Source of the DNA: Thermococcus piezophilus | GTDB lineage: Archaea > Methanobacteriota_B > Thermococci > Thermococcales > Thermococcaceae | Direction: 5' to 3' | DNA: 64,000 nt | Assembly: GCF_001647085.1 (NCBI RefSeq) | Contig: NZ_CP015520.1 | Location: 682,001 to 746,000 of the forward strand | Shown: positions 21,866 to 29,207 of the stretch, piece after piece | How the letters are laid out: every line of letters begins with the position of its first letter | Numbering within the stretch: the stretch's first letter is position 1 | Position numbers and translations under genes: made by a program | The notes under the pieces: model-generated | What the model was told of the DNA's origin: nothing | Database searches by the model: none | Seen by the model: only the letters and a program-made list of their open reading frames with translations

Positions 21866-22531
21866 ATGGCCAGAAAAGCAGCCGTTGCAGTTTTGATAGC
21901 TGTTCTGATTTCCATGAGCCTGTTTGAAGTCCAGCCAGGGGGAAACACTGGAAAACGGCAGAGTCATAATGCAGGCCTTCTACTGAGATGTGCCCATGGG
22001 TGGAATCTAGTGGGATACAATAAGGGCTAAAGTGCCTGAGTGGTCTCAAGCAGGCATAGCCGCAATATGGCTGCCGCCGGCGAGTAAAGACATGAGCGGC
22101 AGCTATTCCGTGGACTATGGTCCATACGACCACTTCGACCTCGGCGAATATGGCCAAAAGGAGACGGTAGAAACGAGGTTCGGCTCAAAGCAGGAGCTCA
22201 TAGCTCTAATCAATAACCCCCGCCAACGGCAGGAATGTTTGAGGGACCTCATTAAAACCCGCTAAAAAGTTGGCGCAGAAAGGGCAGGATTGCGAAGTGA
22301 AAACTACAAGATGGATGAGGCTTTTGATAACAATAATCAAGCAAAACCGGCAGGTGGGTCTACGTTCCGAAGTTTGCTGGCTCATGCATACACGAGTACA
22401 CAGGCAATCAGGGGGATTGGGTGGACAGGCACGTTCAGTACGACGGATGGGTTGAGCTTACTGCTCTACCTCATGACTCTGCCAATGGCTACTACGGCTA
22501 CTCCGTCTAGAGCTACTGTGGGGTTAGGTAA
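21866..22531 (+). pseudogene. Secreted GH13 alpha-amylase, degenerate
   Basis: Remnant of an extracellular alpha-amylase. Recognisable pieces in order are a signal peptide (MARKAAVAVLIAVLISMSL), VIMQAFY followed by TGA where Trp is expected (21984-21986), [28 protein letters not shown], then YKMDEAFDN and a C-terminal [17 protein letters not shown] ending GYYGYSV-stop-SYCGV. Two large internal deletions remove the catalytic TIM-barrel core, and several Trp codons have become stops. It cannot make an active enzyme. Promoter and TGM remain upstream. Confidence 0.88.
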
Positions 22532-22547: not shown

Positions 22548-22868
22548 TTATTCTCTCGGCCTCTTCAGGCCGAGCGTTTCTTCGGATCCTAATGCCAACC
22601 CGGCCCTGAACAGTAGAAACGTCCGGATCAAAAATACTGAAAGTCCTCCCAAAGCGCAAGGTGAACAGGACTTCTTCCCGATGCTCAATCCTCTACCCAG
22701 CAGTGGCATAGCGGGGATTAACCCTATCATTAGAGCTATCTGCTCCACGATTATCCTAAAAGGCACCTAACCATTGTAGAAAAGCCTTAGTATTGATCCA
22801 GTCATGCCAGCTAATGCGAGTGGCATAGTTGATTCAAAGTAGGTTTCCAAACTCGGTAGAGCCTTTAG
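22548..22868 (-). pseudogene. Possible remnant of a small membrane protein
   Basis: A hydrophobic frame of 72 codons (22548-22766) and a further hydrophobic stretch in the same direction up to about 22868 (LETYFESTMPLALAGMTGS) are separated by a stop codon. Together they look like a decayed membrane protein. I recognise no family. It lies between the dead amylase and the cluster of small membrane proteins and could be part of that cluster. Confidence 0.3.
22555..22574. terminator. Perfect 8-bp hairpin after the amylase remnant
   Basis: CTCGGCCT-CTTC-AGGCCGAG, a perfect stem of eight pairs with a four-base loop, 24 bases after the amylase stop. It may be the old terminator. It also lies within the end of a short minus-strand frame. 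Confidence 0.5.
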
Positions 22869-22904
22869 GATTAGTTTAAGAGGATAACAATTTACTGACC
22901 GTCC

Positions 22905-23351
22905 TCATTGGTATCCCTCCGAGTTTCTTTGTATTTTTGAAAACCCGCCCTCGGTATCCCAATCACAGATGCCCCGAATAACAACGCTGGAATCCACAAT
23001 TTTATGCCAATCAACATGGTAGTTAATCTCCTGAAGAAGTCCACCAAGCCAAAAATTTGTCACCCAGTAGAAGATATCCGAAAGGTGCTCCAAATACTCT
23101 CCAAGCAAAAAGGCCACGCTTGTACTCAAAGCTGAAGAATATGGGTACTTAATTTTATTGACATGTACCACTATTCCAACCAGCAGGACAGTCCAGGGGG
23201 TTACGGCGGCCATAGCCCCAAAAAATAAAAAGATATCGTTCATCCCAACTTCCACACCCAATACTGAAATATCCAGTAGCTGCCAAAGCACTTTCACTAC
23301 CCCAACCATCAGCAGTCCAATGAGAACTGCCATCAATGGTTTCCATTTCAT
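22905..23351 (-). CDS. Small membrane protein with shared leader
   Basis: 148 residues with about three hydrophobic segments. The first 18 residues (MKWKPLMAVLIGLLMVGV) are almost the same as the leader of the protein at 24163-24825. ATG 23351 follows GGGGTGA. The frame then departs from the leader pattern (no AGSALA cleavage region), so either it keeps the leader as a membrane anchor or a small indel has changed the frame. No family recognised. It belongs to a cluster of short membrane and secreted proteins on the same strand. Confidence 0.5.
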   Translation of the reverse strand: MKWKPLMAVLIGLLMVGVVKVLWQLLDISVLGVEVGMNDIFLFFGAMAAVTPWTVLLVGIVVHVNKIKYPYSSALSTSVAFLLGEYLEHLSDIFYWVTNFWLGGLLQEINYHVDWHKIVDSSVVIRGICDWDTEGGFSKIQRNSEGYQ

Positions 23352-23433
23352 GAAGTTCACCCCTAGGGAGTTTTGTATTGAATATTGAGGTAATCATACT
23401 GAATGGTCGTATGTTCATTGTCATGAGGCTTTA

Positions 23434-23877
23434 TCACAGAACAGGAGGAAAAATAAATAGCATTAACACACCAGACAAAGCAACATTAATGTGCAGTCCC
23501 AGTGGCAATTTCTCTACAAGCCTGTTAGATATGCTCCTAGCTAACAAAAAATATGAGCAAATCCATCCAATTAGCATTACAATTTCTCTTAAAAGAAATG
23601 AAGCTTCCATAAAGTATAAGACAAAGTTTAAAAGGCCCGCAATACCCAGGGGGTAAAAAGAAACAACATGTTCAGTCCATGAAGTGATTTTTATCCTGTA
23701 CAAGACCACTAATCCTATTGATATTAAAATCATCGAACCTCCATACACAATAAACAATTTCAAGAGAGCACCGATTATTGCGGCAAATACTAGAACAGCA
23801 GAAGTCAGCCAGTCATTATTAGCCATGCTCCAAGTAGCAATAACAAATATGTTCTTAAGTGAGAAAGCGCTTCCCAA
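23434..23877 (-). CDS. Polytopic small membrane protein
   Basis: Up to 147 residues, starting at TTG 23877 or at an internal ATG 23826. Four hydrophobic helices are visible, for example LTSAVLVFAAIIGALLKLF and REIVMLIGWICSYFLLA. It has no recognisable family and few charged residues. Its size and setting next to a secreted peptide-like protein would suit an immunity or export helper, but this is only inference from the neighbourhood. Confidence 0.5.
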   Translation of the reverse strand: MGSAFSLKNIFVIATWSMANNDWLTSAVLVFAAIIGALLKLFIVYGGSMILISIGLVVLYRIKITSWTEHVVSFYPLGIAGLLNFVLYFMEASFLLREIVMLIGWICSYFLLARSISNRLVEKLPLGLHINVALSGVLMLFIFPPVL

Positions 23878-23935
23878 AATAAAGGAATGAAATTTATAAA
23901 CTTCCGGAAAGTTTCCACATTAACACCCCCACAAT

Positions 23936-24160
23936 CTAAGATGACCCCAAGTACCACCCCACTAAACTCGCTGTGGAGATCAGCAGGATATCGATAAACA
24001 AAGATTTTAATTCAGATTTAGGGGATGTACATTTTAGATAGAGCCAATATACAAAAAGTGGAACAACAACATTCGGCATAATAAAGCCACCAAAAGATGC
24101 ACCTACAATAAAATTGAACAAAAAAGAAAATGAGACGATAATGACTTTTCCAAGCTTCAC
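23936..24160 (-). CDS. Two-to-three-helix small membrane protein
   Basis: 74 residues. Hydrophobic segments at about 4-20 (KVIIVSFSFLFNFIVGASFG), 28-42 and 56-72 are separated by short charged loops. It lies two bases after the stop of the 24163-24825 gene, so the two are surely co-transcribed. No family recognised. The tight coupling to a secreted precursor-like gene suggests a partner such as a self-protection or processing protein, which is a guess. Confidence 0.55.
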   Translation of the reverse strand: MKLGKVIIVSFSFLFNFIVGASFGGFIMPNVVVPLFVYWLYLKCTSPKSELKSLFIDILLISTASLVGWYLGSS

Positions 24161-24162
24161 CC

Positions 24163-24825
24163 CTATACCTCCTCGTATATTAAGGCATCCAAGGACGCTC
24201 CCGATGCCAATGTTAAAATTATACCTATTGCCTCAGAGAGAAGTGCGGTAGTTCCGGTTGCCATGAACCCTCCAATGATACCACCGGCACTAGCTAAACT
24301 CATTATATAGCTCTGAAGAACGGAAGCGCTCATATGCCCGATAACGAGTATCCCATGTTTTCCATATCCCGAATTGAAAGTTATTCCCATCCGGATATTG
24401 GAAGTAAATCTACTGTTTGTTTCGACAGTTATAACCTTATATCTGCCTTTATCCTCCACATTAATCAGATGGGCCCCATTCAATGAAGAAGTCCACACTT
24501 TGAGATTGGATGGTACATAAAAAGCTACAGCATATTTTGTCAGGGGAATAATGCGGTATATTTTCACAGCAATGCCACCAAGTTCATTATGCCTCACTTT
24601 ATAGTATCGCACCTTGGTAATGAAAGTTATAGGAGGTAATGGGATTGTTATTTCCGAAACAACTGCATGATAGCCATGTAAAGTGCTTTTTATATATGCA
24701 CCAATACCTATTGTATCATCTGGCTTTATTGGCTCCTTCTGGATTGGTACTGCCAAAGCACTCCCGGCAGTCACTCCAACCATCAGCAGTCCCAAGAGGA
24801 CTGCCGACAAAGGCTTACACTTCAA
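24163..24825 (-). CDS. Secreted protein with hydrophobic Gly/Ala/Ser-rich C-terminal domain (possible bacteriocin-like precursor)
   Basis: 220 residues from TTG 24825, preceded by GGAGGCGA. Three parts can be seen. A signal peptide MKCKPLSAVLLGLLMVGVTA ends in a GSALA cleavage site. A beta-rich region spans about 26-165. A C-terminal block of about 55 residues is almost wholly hydrophobic and small-residue-rich (SLASAGGIIGGFMATGTTAL and GIILTLASGASLDALI). The last block resembles in composition the hydrophobic cores of circular or membrane-active bacteriocins. No specific family was confirmed. The two tiny membrane genes downstream are on the same strand. Confidence 0.55.
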   Translation of the reverse strand: MKCKPLSAVLLGLLMVGVTAGSALAVPIQKEPIKPDDTIGIGAYIKSTLHGYHAVVSEITIPLPPITFITKVRYYKVRHNELGGIAVKIYRIIPLTKYAVAFYVPSNLKVWTSSLNGAHLINVEDKGRYKVITVETNSRFTSNIRMGITFNSGYGKHGILVIGHMSASVLQSYIMSLASAGGIIGGFMATGTTALLSEAIGIILTLASGASLDALIYEEV

Positions 24826-25002
24826 GTGGTTCGCCTCCGATAGTTTTCACTTGATTATTGAGGCTAAGTTTTTAAAAAGTTTTTTCTTCAATGGTAAATT
24901 ACAAACCAATATAAAAAATAATTTTTACGGACAAATACAACATAACTCAGCTAAAACAAGTTAAGTAAAAGAGATTTCCAGATAAATATTAAGAAATCAA
25001 AC

Positions 25003-25780
25003 TTAGAACTCCATCACTCTCTTCACAGCGTGCGGCACCTTGTTGGCCACCTCCAATGCCGTGAAGTTCTCGCCGAGCTCGTCCTTCACCATGTCTCCAG
25101 CGAGGCCGTTGAGAAAAGCACCAACTGAAGCGGCCCTTAGAGGCTCGTTGCCCAGAGCCAGCAATGCACCGACAAGGCCTGCAAGGACATCTCCGGTTCC
25201 CCCTGTTGTCATCCCCCTGTTGCCGGTTTTGTTGTACTTCCAAGTTTTCCCGTCGCTTATGACGTCGTAAGCACCTTTGAGCAAAATAACACCATCAATT
25301 TCCCTCGCTTTTTTCATAACGAGTTTAACTTTCCCCTGGAGGGAATCTCCGGGCTTAATGCCAAAGAGAGCCTTGAACTCACCGCCGTGGGGAGTTAGGA
25401 CGAAGGTCTTGCCCTTGAGAACGCTCAAGTCCTCAGCTATGGCTTTTAGTCCGTCAGCATCTACCACCAAAGGCTTTTCGCAGTGCTTTACAAATTCTCT
25501 AACAAACTCCTTGGTTTCTTCCTTCACTCCCATACCGGGTCCTATGAGGACGGCATCAGCCTTTTCTGCCAGTGCCAAGACTCCTTCAAGATGCACTTTT
25601 GTGAAGTTCTTTCCTTCGACTGGCCTTAGAATAATATCTGGATCGGTTATGCGCTTCGCAGGATATTCCGGCATCACCAGATACACTAAATCAACGATAT
25701 AGCTGGCAGCTTTTGCCGCCAAGTAAGGAGCACCGAAGTAGTCCTCACTTCCACCGATTATTAACAGCTTTCCGTTCTGA
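25003..25780 (-). pseudogene. nnr: nnr copy A, ADP-dependent NAD(P)H-hydrate dehydratase domain (3' part)
   Basis: Encodes the C-terminal NAXD domain of the two-domain NAD(P)HX repair enzyme, which uses ADP to dehydrate damaged NAD(P)H. The domain is clean from about residue M at 25722 to the stop at 25003. It contains AVLIGPGMGV, VVDADGLKAIAED, VLTPHGGEFKALFG and the catalytic TTGGTGDVLAGL. Upstream of 25780 the same frame is destroyed by regularly spaced deletions, so a full bifunctional enzyme cannot be read from here. An internal start at 25722 might still give a stand-alone dehydratase, shorter than the usual domain. Confidence 0.8.
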
Positions 25781-26335
25781 CGCCCCTCTTCCTTAAAGCG
25801 AACTTCGCATCACCGGGGCCAACTAGGTGATTGGATAACCAATTTTGGCAACGATTCTTTCAAAACCCTCAAACTCCTCCTGAATGTTACAGCAAAGTTG
25901 CACTTAACTTGAACTCTTGAGGGATAGCCACAACACTGACAATCCTAGCTTTTCCAGAATATTCGTTGATTTTCTCAATTGCGGCTCGCGCGGCTCGCCC
26001 TTTGTGCCGGCTCCAAGAAGGGCATCAACGAATCCTCAAGATTGAGAGCCTTTATCTGGCTTGAGTCCTTAAGGATTTTAAGTCAAGCTTCCTAAGGATT
26101 TCCCAGTTGTGCCTGGCTTCCTCACTTCTTTCATCACCCACCAAAAAGACCGTCACATCATTCTCGAAGCTTAAATGTCAAAGCCATCCCCACCGTTGTT
26201 TCCCGTCCCGCAGAATATTGCCACGTTACAAACTTTTCTTCTATTGCTCTTGCCACTCCAGCGCCGGCATTTTCCATGGTGAGATGCCAAGCCACTTGGC
26301 GTTGATATCCCAGATGTAAACGTCTTCAGCATCAC
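25781..26335 (-). pseudogene. nnr: nnr copy A, 5' part destroyed by eleven 10-bp deletions
   Basis: This stretch is nearly identical to 28539-29207 (copy B), but each roughly 60 bp of copy B is represented by 50 bp here. From 25631 to 26322 it is 692 bp, against 802 bp in copy B (28389-29190). The difference is 110 bp, exactly eleven gaps of 10 bp. Junctions lie near 25782, 25832, 25882, 25932, 25982, 26032, 26081, 26130, 26180, 26229 and 26279. The lost bases code for conserved epimerase-domain residues, so copy B is the ancestral form. The region encodes nothing now. Confidence 0.9.
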
Positions 26336-26413
26336 CATGGGAAAATCGGAAAAAGAGGGTTAAGACCTTTTCCATTCTTACTGCTGAAAAACAGAAAGTA
26401 ATCCCCGCTTGTC

Positions 26414-28259: not shown

Positions 28260-28388
28260 GAGCTGTTTTTGGAATTTCATTAAGAACATTAAAGCTCAAA
28301 TCTAACACCTAAATCAAAAGAGCATTGTAGTTAAATGTTTCAGGTAATACCCTTCGTTCTAATATGCTATACCTCATCTTCATACTAA

Positions 28389-29207
28389 ATAATATCTGGA
28401 TCGGTTATGCGCTTCGCAGGATATTCCGGCATCACCAGATACACTAAATCAACGATATAGCTGGCAGCTTTTGCCGCCAAGTAAGGAGCACCGAAGTAGT
28501 CCTCACTTCCACCGATTATTAACAGCTTTCCGTTCTGACCCTTGTGCTCGCCCCTCTTCCTTAAAGCGAACTTCGCATCACCGGGGCCAACTAGGTGATA
28601 AAGCTCCTTTGGATAACCAATTTTGGCAACGATTCTTTCAAAACCCTCAAACTCCTCCTTGTCCCACTGGAATGTTACAGCAAAGTTGCACTTAACTTGA
28701 ACTCTTGAGGGATAGCCACTTGGCAGGTCAACACTCACAATCCTAGCTTTTCCAGAATATTCGTTGATTTTCTCAATTGCGGAACGTATCGGCTCGCGCG
28801 GCTCGCCCTTTGTGCCGGCTCCAAGAAGGGCATCAACGATAACATCATAATCCTCAAGATTGAGAGCCTTTATCTGGCTTGAGTCCTTAAGGATTTTGAT
28901 CCTTACAAAGTCAAGCTTCCTAAGGATTTCCCAGTTGTGCCTGGCTTCCTCACTTCTAGATTTTTATTTCATCACCCACCAAAAAGACCGTCACATCATT
29001 CTCGAAGCTTAAATGTCTAGCAACAACAAAGCCATCCCCACCGTTGTTTCCCGTCCCGCAGAATATTGCCACGTTAAGGCCTTTTCCAAACTTTTCTTCT
29101 ATTGCTCTTGCCACTCCAGCGCCGGCATTTTCCATGAGCTGAAAGGGTGAGATGCCAAGCCACTTGGCGTTGATATCCCAGATGTAAACGACTTCAATGA
29201 TCACCAT
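28389..29207 (-). pseudogene. nnr: nnr copy B, NAD(P)HX epimerase domain and start of dehydratase domain
   Basis: Carries the N-terminal NAXE (epimerase) domain: [38 protein letters not shown], and after a break VDALLGAGTKGEPREPI and VSVDLPSG. It then runs into the start of the dehydratase domain and stops abruptly at 28389, where sequence identity with copy A (from 25631) also ends. One frameshift near 28962 (an extra T giving a TAG) splits the frame after GDEIKI. Joined to 25003-25630 it would rebuild a complete bifunctional enzyme, so the 2.76 kb between them looks inserted or duplicated. Confidence 0.85.

What the first reader, a model, noticed from the sequence alone, without database searches (positions are those of the whole stretch)
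22905..24825. Island of signal-peptide and tiny membrane proteins resembling a bacteriocin-type system
Two proteins share the leader MKxKPLxAVLxGLLMVGV. One ends in a 55-residue hydrophobic Gly/Ala/Ser block with SLASAGGIIGGFMATGTTAL, and two short polytopic membrane proteins are co-oriented, one two bases downstream. The set resembles precursor plus immunity/export genes of membrane-active or circular bacteriocins. No function is confirmed. The island is AT-rich and sits in a decayed accessory zone.
Basis: inference. Interest (0 to 1): 0.62.

Follow-up and report, generated by a model that had tools for sequence, protein, structure and literature searches.

The report
Swappable secreted-effector and immunity-like gene cassettes
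In heat-loving Thermococcus archaea, one nearly constant promoter and export signal is attached to about nineteen unrelated secreted proteins; the one found here travels with two matching membrane proteins that can persist without it, which looks like a toxin-and-immunity weapon whose warhead can be swapped.

Summary
C (147 aa) carries N-terminal indels. D (the second 'leader' protein) is a frameshifted remnant of a second, decayed module. A is a Sec-leader protein with a beta-rich middle and a small-residue C-terminal block. It has 27 near-full-length relatives in Thermococcaceae and none in the searched genomes outside that family. All 27 are followed by C, and nearly all by a recognisable B. 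A, B and C co-vary (Mantel r 0.82-0.86). B/C sets occur without intact A, but A never occurs without C: the pattern expected of toxin and immunity. The shared leader is wider than the finding: 65 of 94 family genomes carry it, on about 19 unrelated mature families, with no above-cutoff Pfam domain among 26 representatives scanned. It comes with a conserved promoter; in this genome that motif has four hits, all at leader genes. In three pairs of syntenic loci homology breaks inside the leader and resumes beyond unrelated genes. Best reading: a cassette-swapping secreted effector-immunity system, bacteriocin-like in logic. It is not a circular bacteriocin, and lacks the published VARTIG C-terminal motif. 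Toxicity is inferred, not shown.

The parts
24826..24900 (-). Promoter and 5' UTR of A: TATA-like AAAAACTTTTTAAAAA, GTGAAAACT, Shine-Dalgarno-like GGAGGCGAACC; member of the conserved promoter class
   Evidence: 82% identical to the promoter of an unrelated-mature leader gene (L064_6625, family C3)
24748..24825 (-). Constant leader (Sec-type signal peptide) of A, MKCKPLSAVLLGLLMVGVTAGSALAV
   Evidence: Leader profile A2 found in 65 of 94 Thermococcaceae genomes; 71% mean pairwise identity over 82 leaders
24163..24825 (-). Gene A, intact 220-aa secreted protein, proposed effector
   Evidence: 27 near-full-length copies including this one, all in Thermococcaceae; no Pfam/NCBIfam family above cutoff
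24166..24360 (-). C-terminal 65 residues of A: small-residue (40% Gly/Ala/Ser) helical segment plus conserved final segment SGASLDALIYEEV
   Evidence: conserved end; composition across 22 copies
23936..24160 (-). Gene B, 74 aa, two predicted TM helices, proposed cognate immunity protein
   Evidence: 2-bp gap after A; 93% identical in L045; a B-type gene follows A in nearly all copies (three with B+C fused); B also found without A
23434..23877 (-). Gene C, 147-aa remaining ORF, multi-TM, ends FIFPPVL; N-terminal part disrupted by 1-base and 7-base deletions
   Evidence: alignment with intact 168-aa copy L045:898-1404; C family found in 26 genomes
23298..23360 (-). Leader remnant of the second, decayed module (MNFMKWKPLMAVLIGLLMVGV), frameshifted downstream
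22895..23261 (-). Remnant of a B-type gene in three frame-broken pieces
   Evidence: 66-91% identity to L038 B
22626..22880 (-). Remnant of a C-type gene in two pieces, with an in-frame stop
21933..22525 (+). Decayed alpha-amylase-like gene that borders the module site, intact in relatives
   Evidence: tblastn of the L034 468-aa protein

Best explanation
A-B-C is one cassette of a Thermococcaceae-wide secreted effector-immunity system. A constant ~250-bp promoter-plus-leader segment drives co-regulated expression and Sec export of whatever mature protein lies behind it. Here that is A, a secreted protein predicted to act on the membrane of related cells through its small-residue C-terminal helical segment. 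B, and probably C, are membrane proteins of the producer that protect it from its own A. New specificities arise when cassettes are exchanged by recombination within the constant leader. Shown by sequence: the constant leader and promoter; obligate A-C linkage with B in nearly all copies; co-variation; B/C sets without A; swaps that break inside the leader. Inferred: that A kills or inhibits, that its target is the membrane, and that B/C are immunity rather than export factors. In the window the unit is probably degenerating, because C has lost its original start.
For: All 27 near-full-length A genes, in 21 genomes and including copies with other leaders, are followed by C within about 1.5 kb. 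B-type genes sit directly after A, often 2-4 bp apart or overlapping; in three copies B and C are fused. The gene after A has two or more TM segments in 22 of 22 copies against 104 of 432 for other close co-oriented pairs (p 1e-13). Distances of A, B and C correlate (Mantel r 0.86, 0.84, 0.82, p 2e-4), and two divergent copies in one genome each keep divergent partners. Intact B/C sets without intact A: L144 (no A anywhere in genome G015), L146, L148, and two sets in L044; plus a lone B in L042. Leader: 65 of 94 family genomes, about 19 mature families of 100 aa or more, no above-cutoff Pfam match among 26 representatives. Promoter motif: 4 hits in the own genome, reversed-pattern control 0, all four upstream of leader genes. 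Swaps: L087/L091, L049/L079, L053/L111 share flanks, diverge at +49 to +73 nt inside the leader, and match again after different genes.
Against: No toxicity, secretion or immunity data exist. A has no recognisable toxin domain and no reliable fold (pLDDT 37 and 39). The orphan counts are small (six against none, sign test p 0.03). The Mantel correlations do not correct for species relatedness apart from the same-genome pairs. For leader families other than A, the enrichment of multi-TM neighbours is not significant (17 of 53, p 0.24). B and C could be secretion or anchoring partners.
Confidence: 0.58

Rival explanations
1. A is a surface adhesin or recognition protein, and B/C are the membrane complex that exports or anchors it, analogous to the recognition hypothesis for the Thermococcales VARTIG islands.
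For: Invariant A-C linkage; a beta-rich middle, though only low-confidence models show it; VARTIG in the same archaea is likewise variable, shuffled and rich in membrane proteins (PMC8416519).
Against: Intact B/C sets persist where A is lost, and tandem B genes before one C occur (L145, L044). Export or anchoring parts without a client are not expected to be kept. The VARTIG C-terminal motif is absent from ORFs of 100 aa or more in the loci tested.
Confidence: 0.22
2. The leader-promoter cassette marks an ordinary stress or nutrient regulon of secreted proteins such as binding proteins or hydrolases; A-B-C is one metabolic or envelope member and cassette exchange is incidental.
For: Shared promoter with a palindrome-like TTACT-N-AGTAA element (28 of 92 against 8 of 1620 random stretches).
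Against: None of the 26 representatives matches a Pfam family above its cutoff. Distribution is patchy, up to nine copies per genome, with many truncated copies and swaps, unlike housekeeping secreted enzymes.
Confidence: 0.12
3. A true circular or leaderless class II bacteriocin cluster, with the C-terminal 55 residues released as the peptide.
For: Small-residue hydrophobic tail; small TM protein next door; Yip1-family proteins occur in such clusters (PMC8659200, PMC8534725, PMC10707071) and one C homologue matches Yip1 weakly (E 1.4e-4, below cutoff).
Against: No bacteriocin family match of the tails; no DUF95 or ABC gene in the unit; the conserved segment after the tail and co-variation of the rest of A with B/C suggest the whole mature protein acts; a profile-profile test of C against four Yip1 proteins fails.
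Confidence: 0.05
4. A decayed island with no function.
For: In the window C has lost its start, and the second module, the amylase-like gene and nnr are broken.
Against: A and B are intact and A is 84-92% identical in two other genomes; relatives of A with their partner genes exist in 20 other genomes.
Confidence: 0.03

Closest known systems
Polymorphic toxin systems (Zhang et al. 2012, PMC3482391) and E. coli CDI ionophore toxins with CdiI (PMC11630599)
   Same: Constant delivery part with swappable effector; adjacent cognate immunity. CDI ionophore immunity proteins are 72-100-residue hydrophobic two-helix proteins, as B is (74-146 aa, 2-4 TM); toxin and immunity diversify together.
   Different: The constant part here is only a signal peptide with its promoter, not a large delivery protein; no known toxin domain; two membrane partners; archaeal and, as far as searched, confined to one family.
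SitA/SitI lipoprotein toxins of myxobacteria (PMC5562445)
   Same: Signal-sequence toxins with unrelated C-terminal parts and adjacent immunity genes, used between relatives.
   Different: SitA shares a long N-terminal domain and a lipobox and is delivered by outer-membrane exchange; here only about 25 residues are shared and there is no lipobox.
VARTIG islands of Thermococcales (PMC8416519)
   Same: Same archaeal order, hypervariable, recombining, a first gene followed by small membrane proteins.
   Different: VARTIG centres on large Ig-domain proteins with a C-terminal D[ND]NxxxG[GD] motif; no ORF in the loci tested has it, and A is a different, smaller family.
Circular and leaderless bacteriocins with Yip1-type accessory proteins (PMC8659200, PMC11580447)
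   Same: Membrane-active candidate next to small polytopic proteins.
   Different: No family match, no DUF95 or ABC genes, Sec leader, 220-aa protein.

Membership tests
Circular bacteriocin cluster | Precursor core matches a known circular bacteriocin family | tested here: not met
   no match of A or its tail
Circular bacteriocin cluster | DUF95/SpoIIM membrane protein and ABC exporter in the cluster | tested here: not met
   window B and C have no Pfam/NCBIfam match; C set has no family above cutoff; no ABC gene seen in the A-B-C units
Circular bacteriocin cluster | Head-to-tail cyclised product | not testable with these tools
   needs mass spectrometry
Polymorphic toxin system | Constant N-terminal delivery region joined to unrelated C-terminal effectors by recombination | tested here: met
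   about 19 mature families, switch point inside the leader
Polymorphic toxin system | Cognate immunity gene directly downstream that diversifies with the effector | tested here: inconclusive
   linkage and co-variation of the downstream genes are shown; that they confer immunity is not
Polymorphic toxin system | Immunity genes occur without toxin, toxin not without immunity | tested here: met
   six against none, p 0.03
Polymorphic toxin system | Recognised toxin domain or shown toxicity | tested here: inconclusive
   no Pfam domain; structure unreliable; no assay
VARTIG | C-terminal D[ND]NxxxG[GD] motif | tested here: not met
   none in ORFs of 100 aa or more in the loci tested
VARTIG | arCOG07710 large Ig-domain protein first in the operon | tested here: inconclusive
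   leader proteins are about 500 aa or less; no Ig-domain Pfam hit in the 26 scanned; arCOG profiles not available
Yip1 family (gene C) | Match to PF04893 above cutoff | tested here: not met
   one member at E 1.4e-4 below cutoff; hhalign probability 0.2 against a four-sequence Yip1 alignment

The most novel reading that the evidence does not exclude
Thermococcaceae carry a family-wide arsenal of secreted effectors of at least 19 unrelated types, all read out through one constant promoter-leader cassette that also serves as the recombination handle for swapping effector-immunity sets at fixed chromosomal sites: an archaeal, Sec-exported polymorphic effector system with a signal peptide as its only constant part.
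Probability: 0.45. Interest if true: 0.85.

Novelty: new variant of a known kind. Interest (0 to 1): 0.68.

Why it matters
Antagonism weapons of hyperthermophilic archaea are largely unknown. If correct, this gives a defined, genetically tractable set of candidate effectors and immunity proteins in Thermococcus, explains a swath of secreted proteins without recognised domains by one simple rule (same leader and promoter), and shows effector switching through a signal-peptide-sized homology. Heat-stable membrane-active proteins would also be of practical use.

Tried and rejected
Circular bacteriocin identity: rejected. Yip1 membership of C: rejected as unproven. PDB profile search of A: only doubtful partial hits (3ct4, E 0.007). 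Phage, plasmid and viral-contig searches: no relatives. PADLOC: only an isolated weak hit, one of 16 members at E 0.014. VARTIG membership: motif absent. The second leader protein D as a real effector: rejected, it is a remnant. Paper search for the leader string: none in the held library; the 2019 mBio survey of archaeal polymorphic toxins was not held, so prior mention there cannot be excluded.

Full report
1. What is in the window. The island lies on the minus strand. Gene A (24825-24163, TTG start) encodes 220 aa: a Sec-type leader MKCKPLSAVLLGLLMVGVTAGSALA, a beta-rich middle, and a small-residue helical C-terminal block that ends SGASLDALIYEEV. Gene B (24160-23936, 74 aa, two TM segments) starts two bases after A's stop. 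The third ORF, C (23877-23434), is multi-TM and ends FIFPPVL. The region is 38-39% GC against mostly 46-50% around it. Compared with the intact copy in a Thermococcus paralvinellae MAG (L003/L045), C has lost one base at its start and seven bases shortly after, so the remaining ORF begins inside what was the first TM segment. ORF 22905-23360, the supposed second secreted protein, is a leader whose frame shifts just after GLLMVGV into three broken pieces of a B-type gene, followed by pieces of a C-type gene. The window therefore holds one nearly intact module and one dead one.

2. The family. The window lies in a 1.93-Mb Thermococcaceae genome. A profile of A finds 27 near-full-length copies (this one included) in 21 genomes of that family and none in the other genomes of a 115-genome phylum set. 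All 27 are followed by a C gene. B-type genes of 74-146 aa with 2-4 TM segments lie between A and C in nearly all copies; in L047-L049 B and C are fused, and the C gene of L056 and L057 is also longer. This holds even for A relatives that have exchanged the leader for another (L055-L057). The gene after A has two or more TM segments in 22 of 22 copies against 104 of 432 for other close co-oriented pairs in the same loci (Fisher p 1e-13). A, B and C of the window match no Pfam or NCBIfam model above its cutoff, nor do the A and C homologues scanned.

3. Cognate sets and orphans. Pairwise distances of A, B and C correlate strongly (Mantel r 0.86 A-B, 0.84 A-C, 0.82 B-C). In six genomes two divergent A copies each keep divergent B and C, so shared ancestry of the species alone does not explain it. 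Intact B/C sets without an intact A occur in L144 (B 97% identical to the B of L040, although its genome G015 has no A at all), L146, L148 and twice in L044; L042 carries a lone extra B; L145, L147 and L149 have damaged ones. The reverse, A without C, was not found among 27. The counts are small (six against none, sign test p 0.03), but the direction is what toxin-immunity predicts and what an export or anchoring role for B/C does not.

4. The leader is the larger finding. A leader profile is found in 65 of 94 family genomes, up to nine times in one genome. Among 94 leader genes that I read, the mature parts fall into about 19 unrelated families of at least 100 aa; of 26 representatives none has an above-cutoff Pfam hit. 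Several of these families have their own recurrent downstream partner, although multi-TM partners are not enriched outside the A family (17 of 53, p 0.24). Mean leader identity is 71% over 26 residues, far more than signal peptides need. Conservation continues upstream: a TTACT-N-AGTAA element, GGAAAA, TTATAA and GGAGGTGAACC. In the window's own genome the motif has four hits with up to three mismatches, none for the reversed control, and all four lie just upstream of leader genes. A's own promoter is a diverged class shared with genes of other mature families.

5. Cassette swapping. In three pairs of genomes the same chromosomal site carries different contents behind the same leader: flanks are homologous, homology stops at +49, +69 or +73 nt inside the leader, and resumes beyond unrelated genes. 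L049/L079 and L053/L111 exchange an A-B-C module for another family; L087/L091 share an identical 120-bp promoter. At unlinked sites only about -180 to +77 is shared (L062/L097, L050/L065). The window's site, between ArsR-type regulators and nnr and next to an amylase-like gene, also carries modules in relatives (L034, L044, L053; L045 shows the regulator and amylase side) with different content.

6. Interpretation. The simplest mechanism that fits all of this is a secreted effector (A) with membrane immunity (B, probably C), expressed from a constant promoter-leader cassette that doubles as the recombination handle. Membrane action is inferred from the tail and from the membrane location of the partners; CDI ionophore toxins with 72-100-residue two-helix immunity proteins are a documented precedent (PMC11630599), and SitA shows that signal-sequence toxins with unrelated C-termini exist (PMC5562445). 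Rivals are given separately; the strongest is a recognition or adhesion role akin to VARTIG.

7. Limits. Nothing here shows toxicity, secretion or immunity. Some family genomes are incomplete; loci at contig ends (L150, L151) were not counted as orphans. TM counts are hydropathy-based. The leader families were delimited by BLAST single linkage, so very remote homology between some of them is possible. The 2019 mBio survey of archaeal toxins could not be read, so earlier notice of A or its relatives there is possible.

Noticed in passing
window 25006-26338 and 28388-29198: nnr (NAD(P)H-hydrate repair, YjeF type) appears twice: one full-length-like copy with frame breaks (55% identity to the intact L034 protein) and a truncated copy at 80-85% identity with a radical-SAM-like gene between.
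   Followed up: partly
window 21933-22525: Remnants of an alpha-amylase-like gene that is intact (468 aa) at the same site in L034 and L044.
   Followed up: partly
L144 5500-7121: An intact B-C pair without A sits 31 bp behind what look like ABC-transporter genes in a genome that has no A, as if immunity had been recruited into another operon.
   Followed up: partly
G000:C1 881443, 1512330, 1515931, 1519876: Other leader genes of this genome, all with the promoter motif; those at 881.5 kb and 1515.9 kb look truncated.
   Followed up: partly
L077, L102, L106 (leader family C4): A leader family with a 267-aa mature part followed by a ~117-aa multi-TM gene in two of the three; one of the 26 scanned leader representatives has a Gly-zipper hit (E 4e-4), member not identified.
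   Followed up: no
L034 4865-5332 and 6313-6717, L038 6099-6494, L111: A further 131-140-aa TM family (MKLYGTEVPFILFLRWW...LGAEKTLGL) recurs downstream of different leader families; possibly a shared accessory or immunity gene.
   Followed up: no
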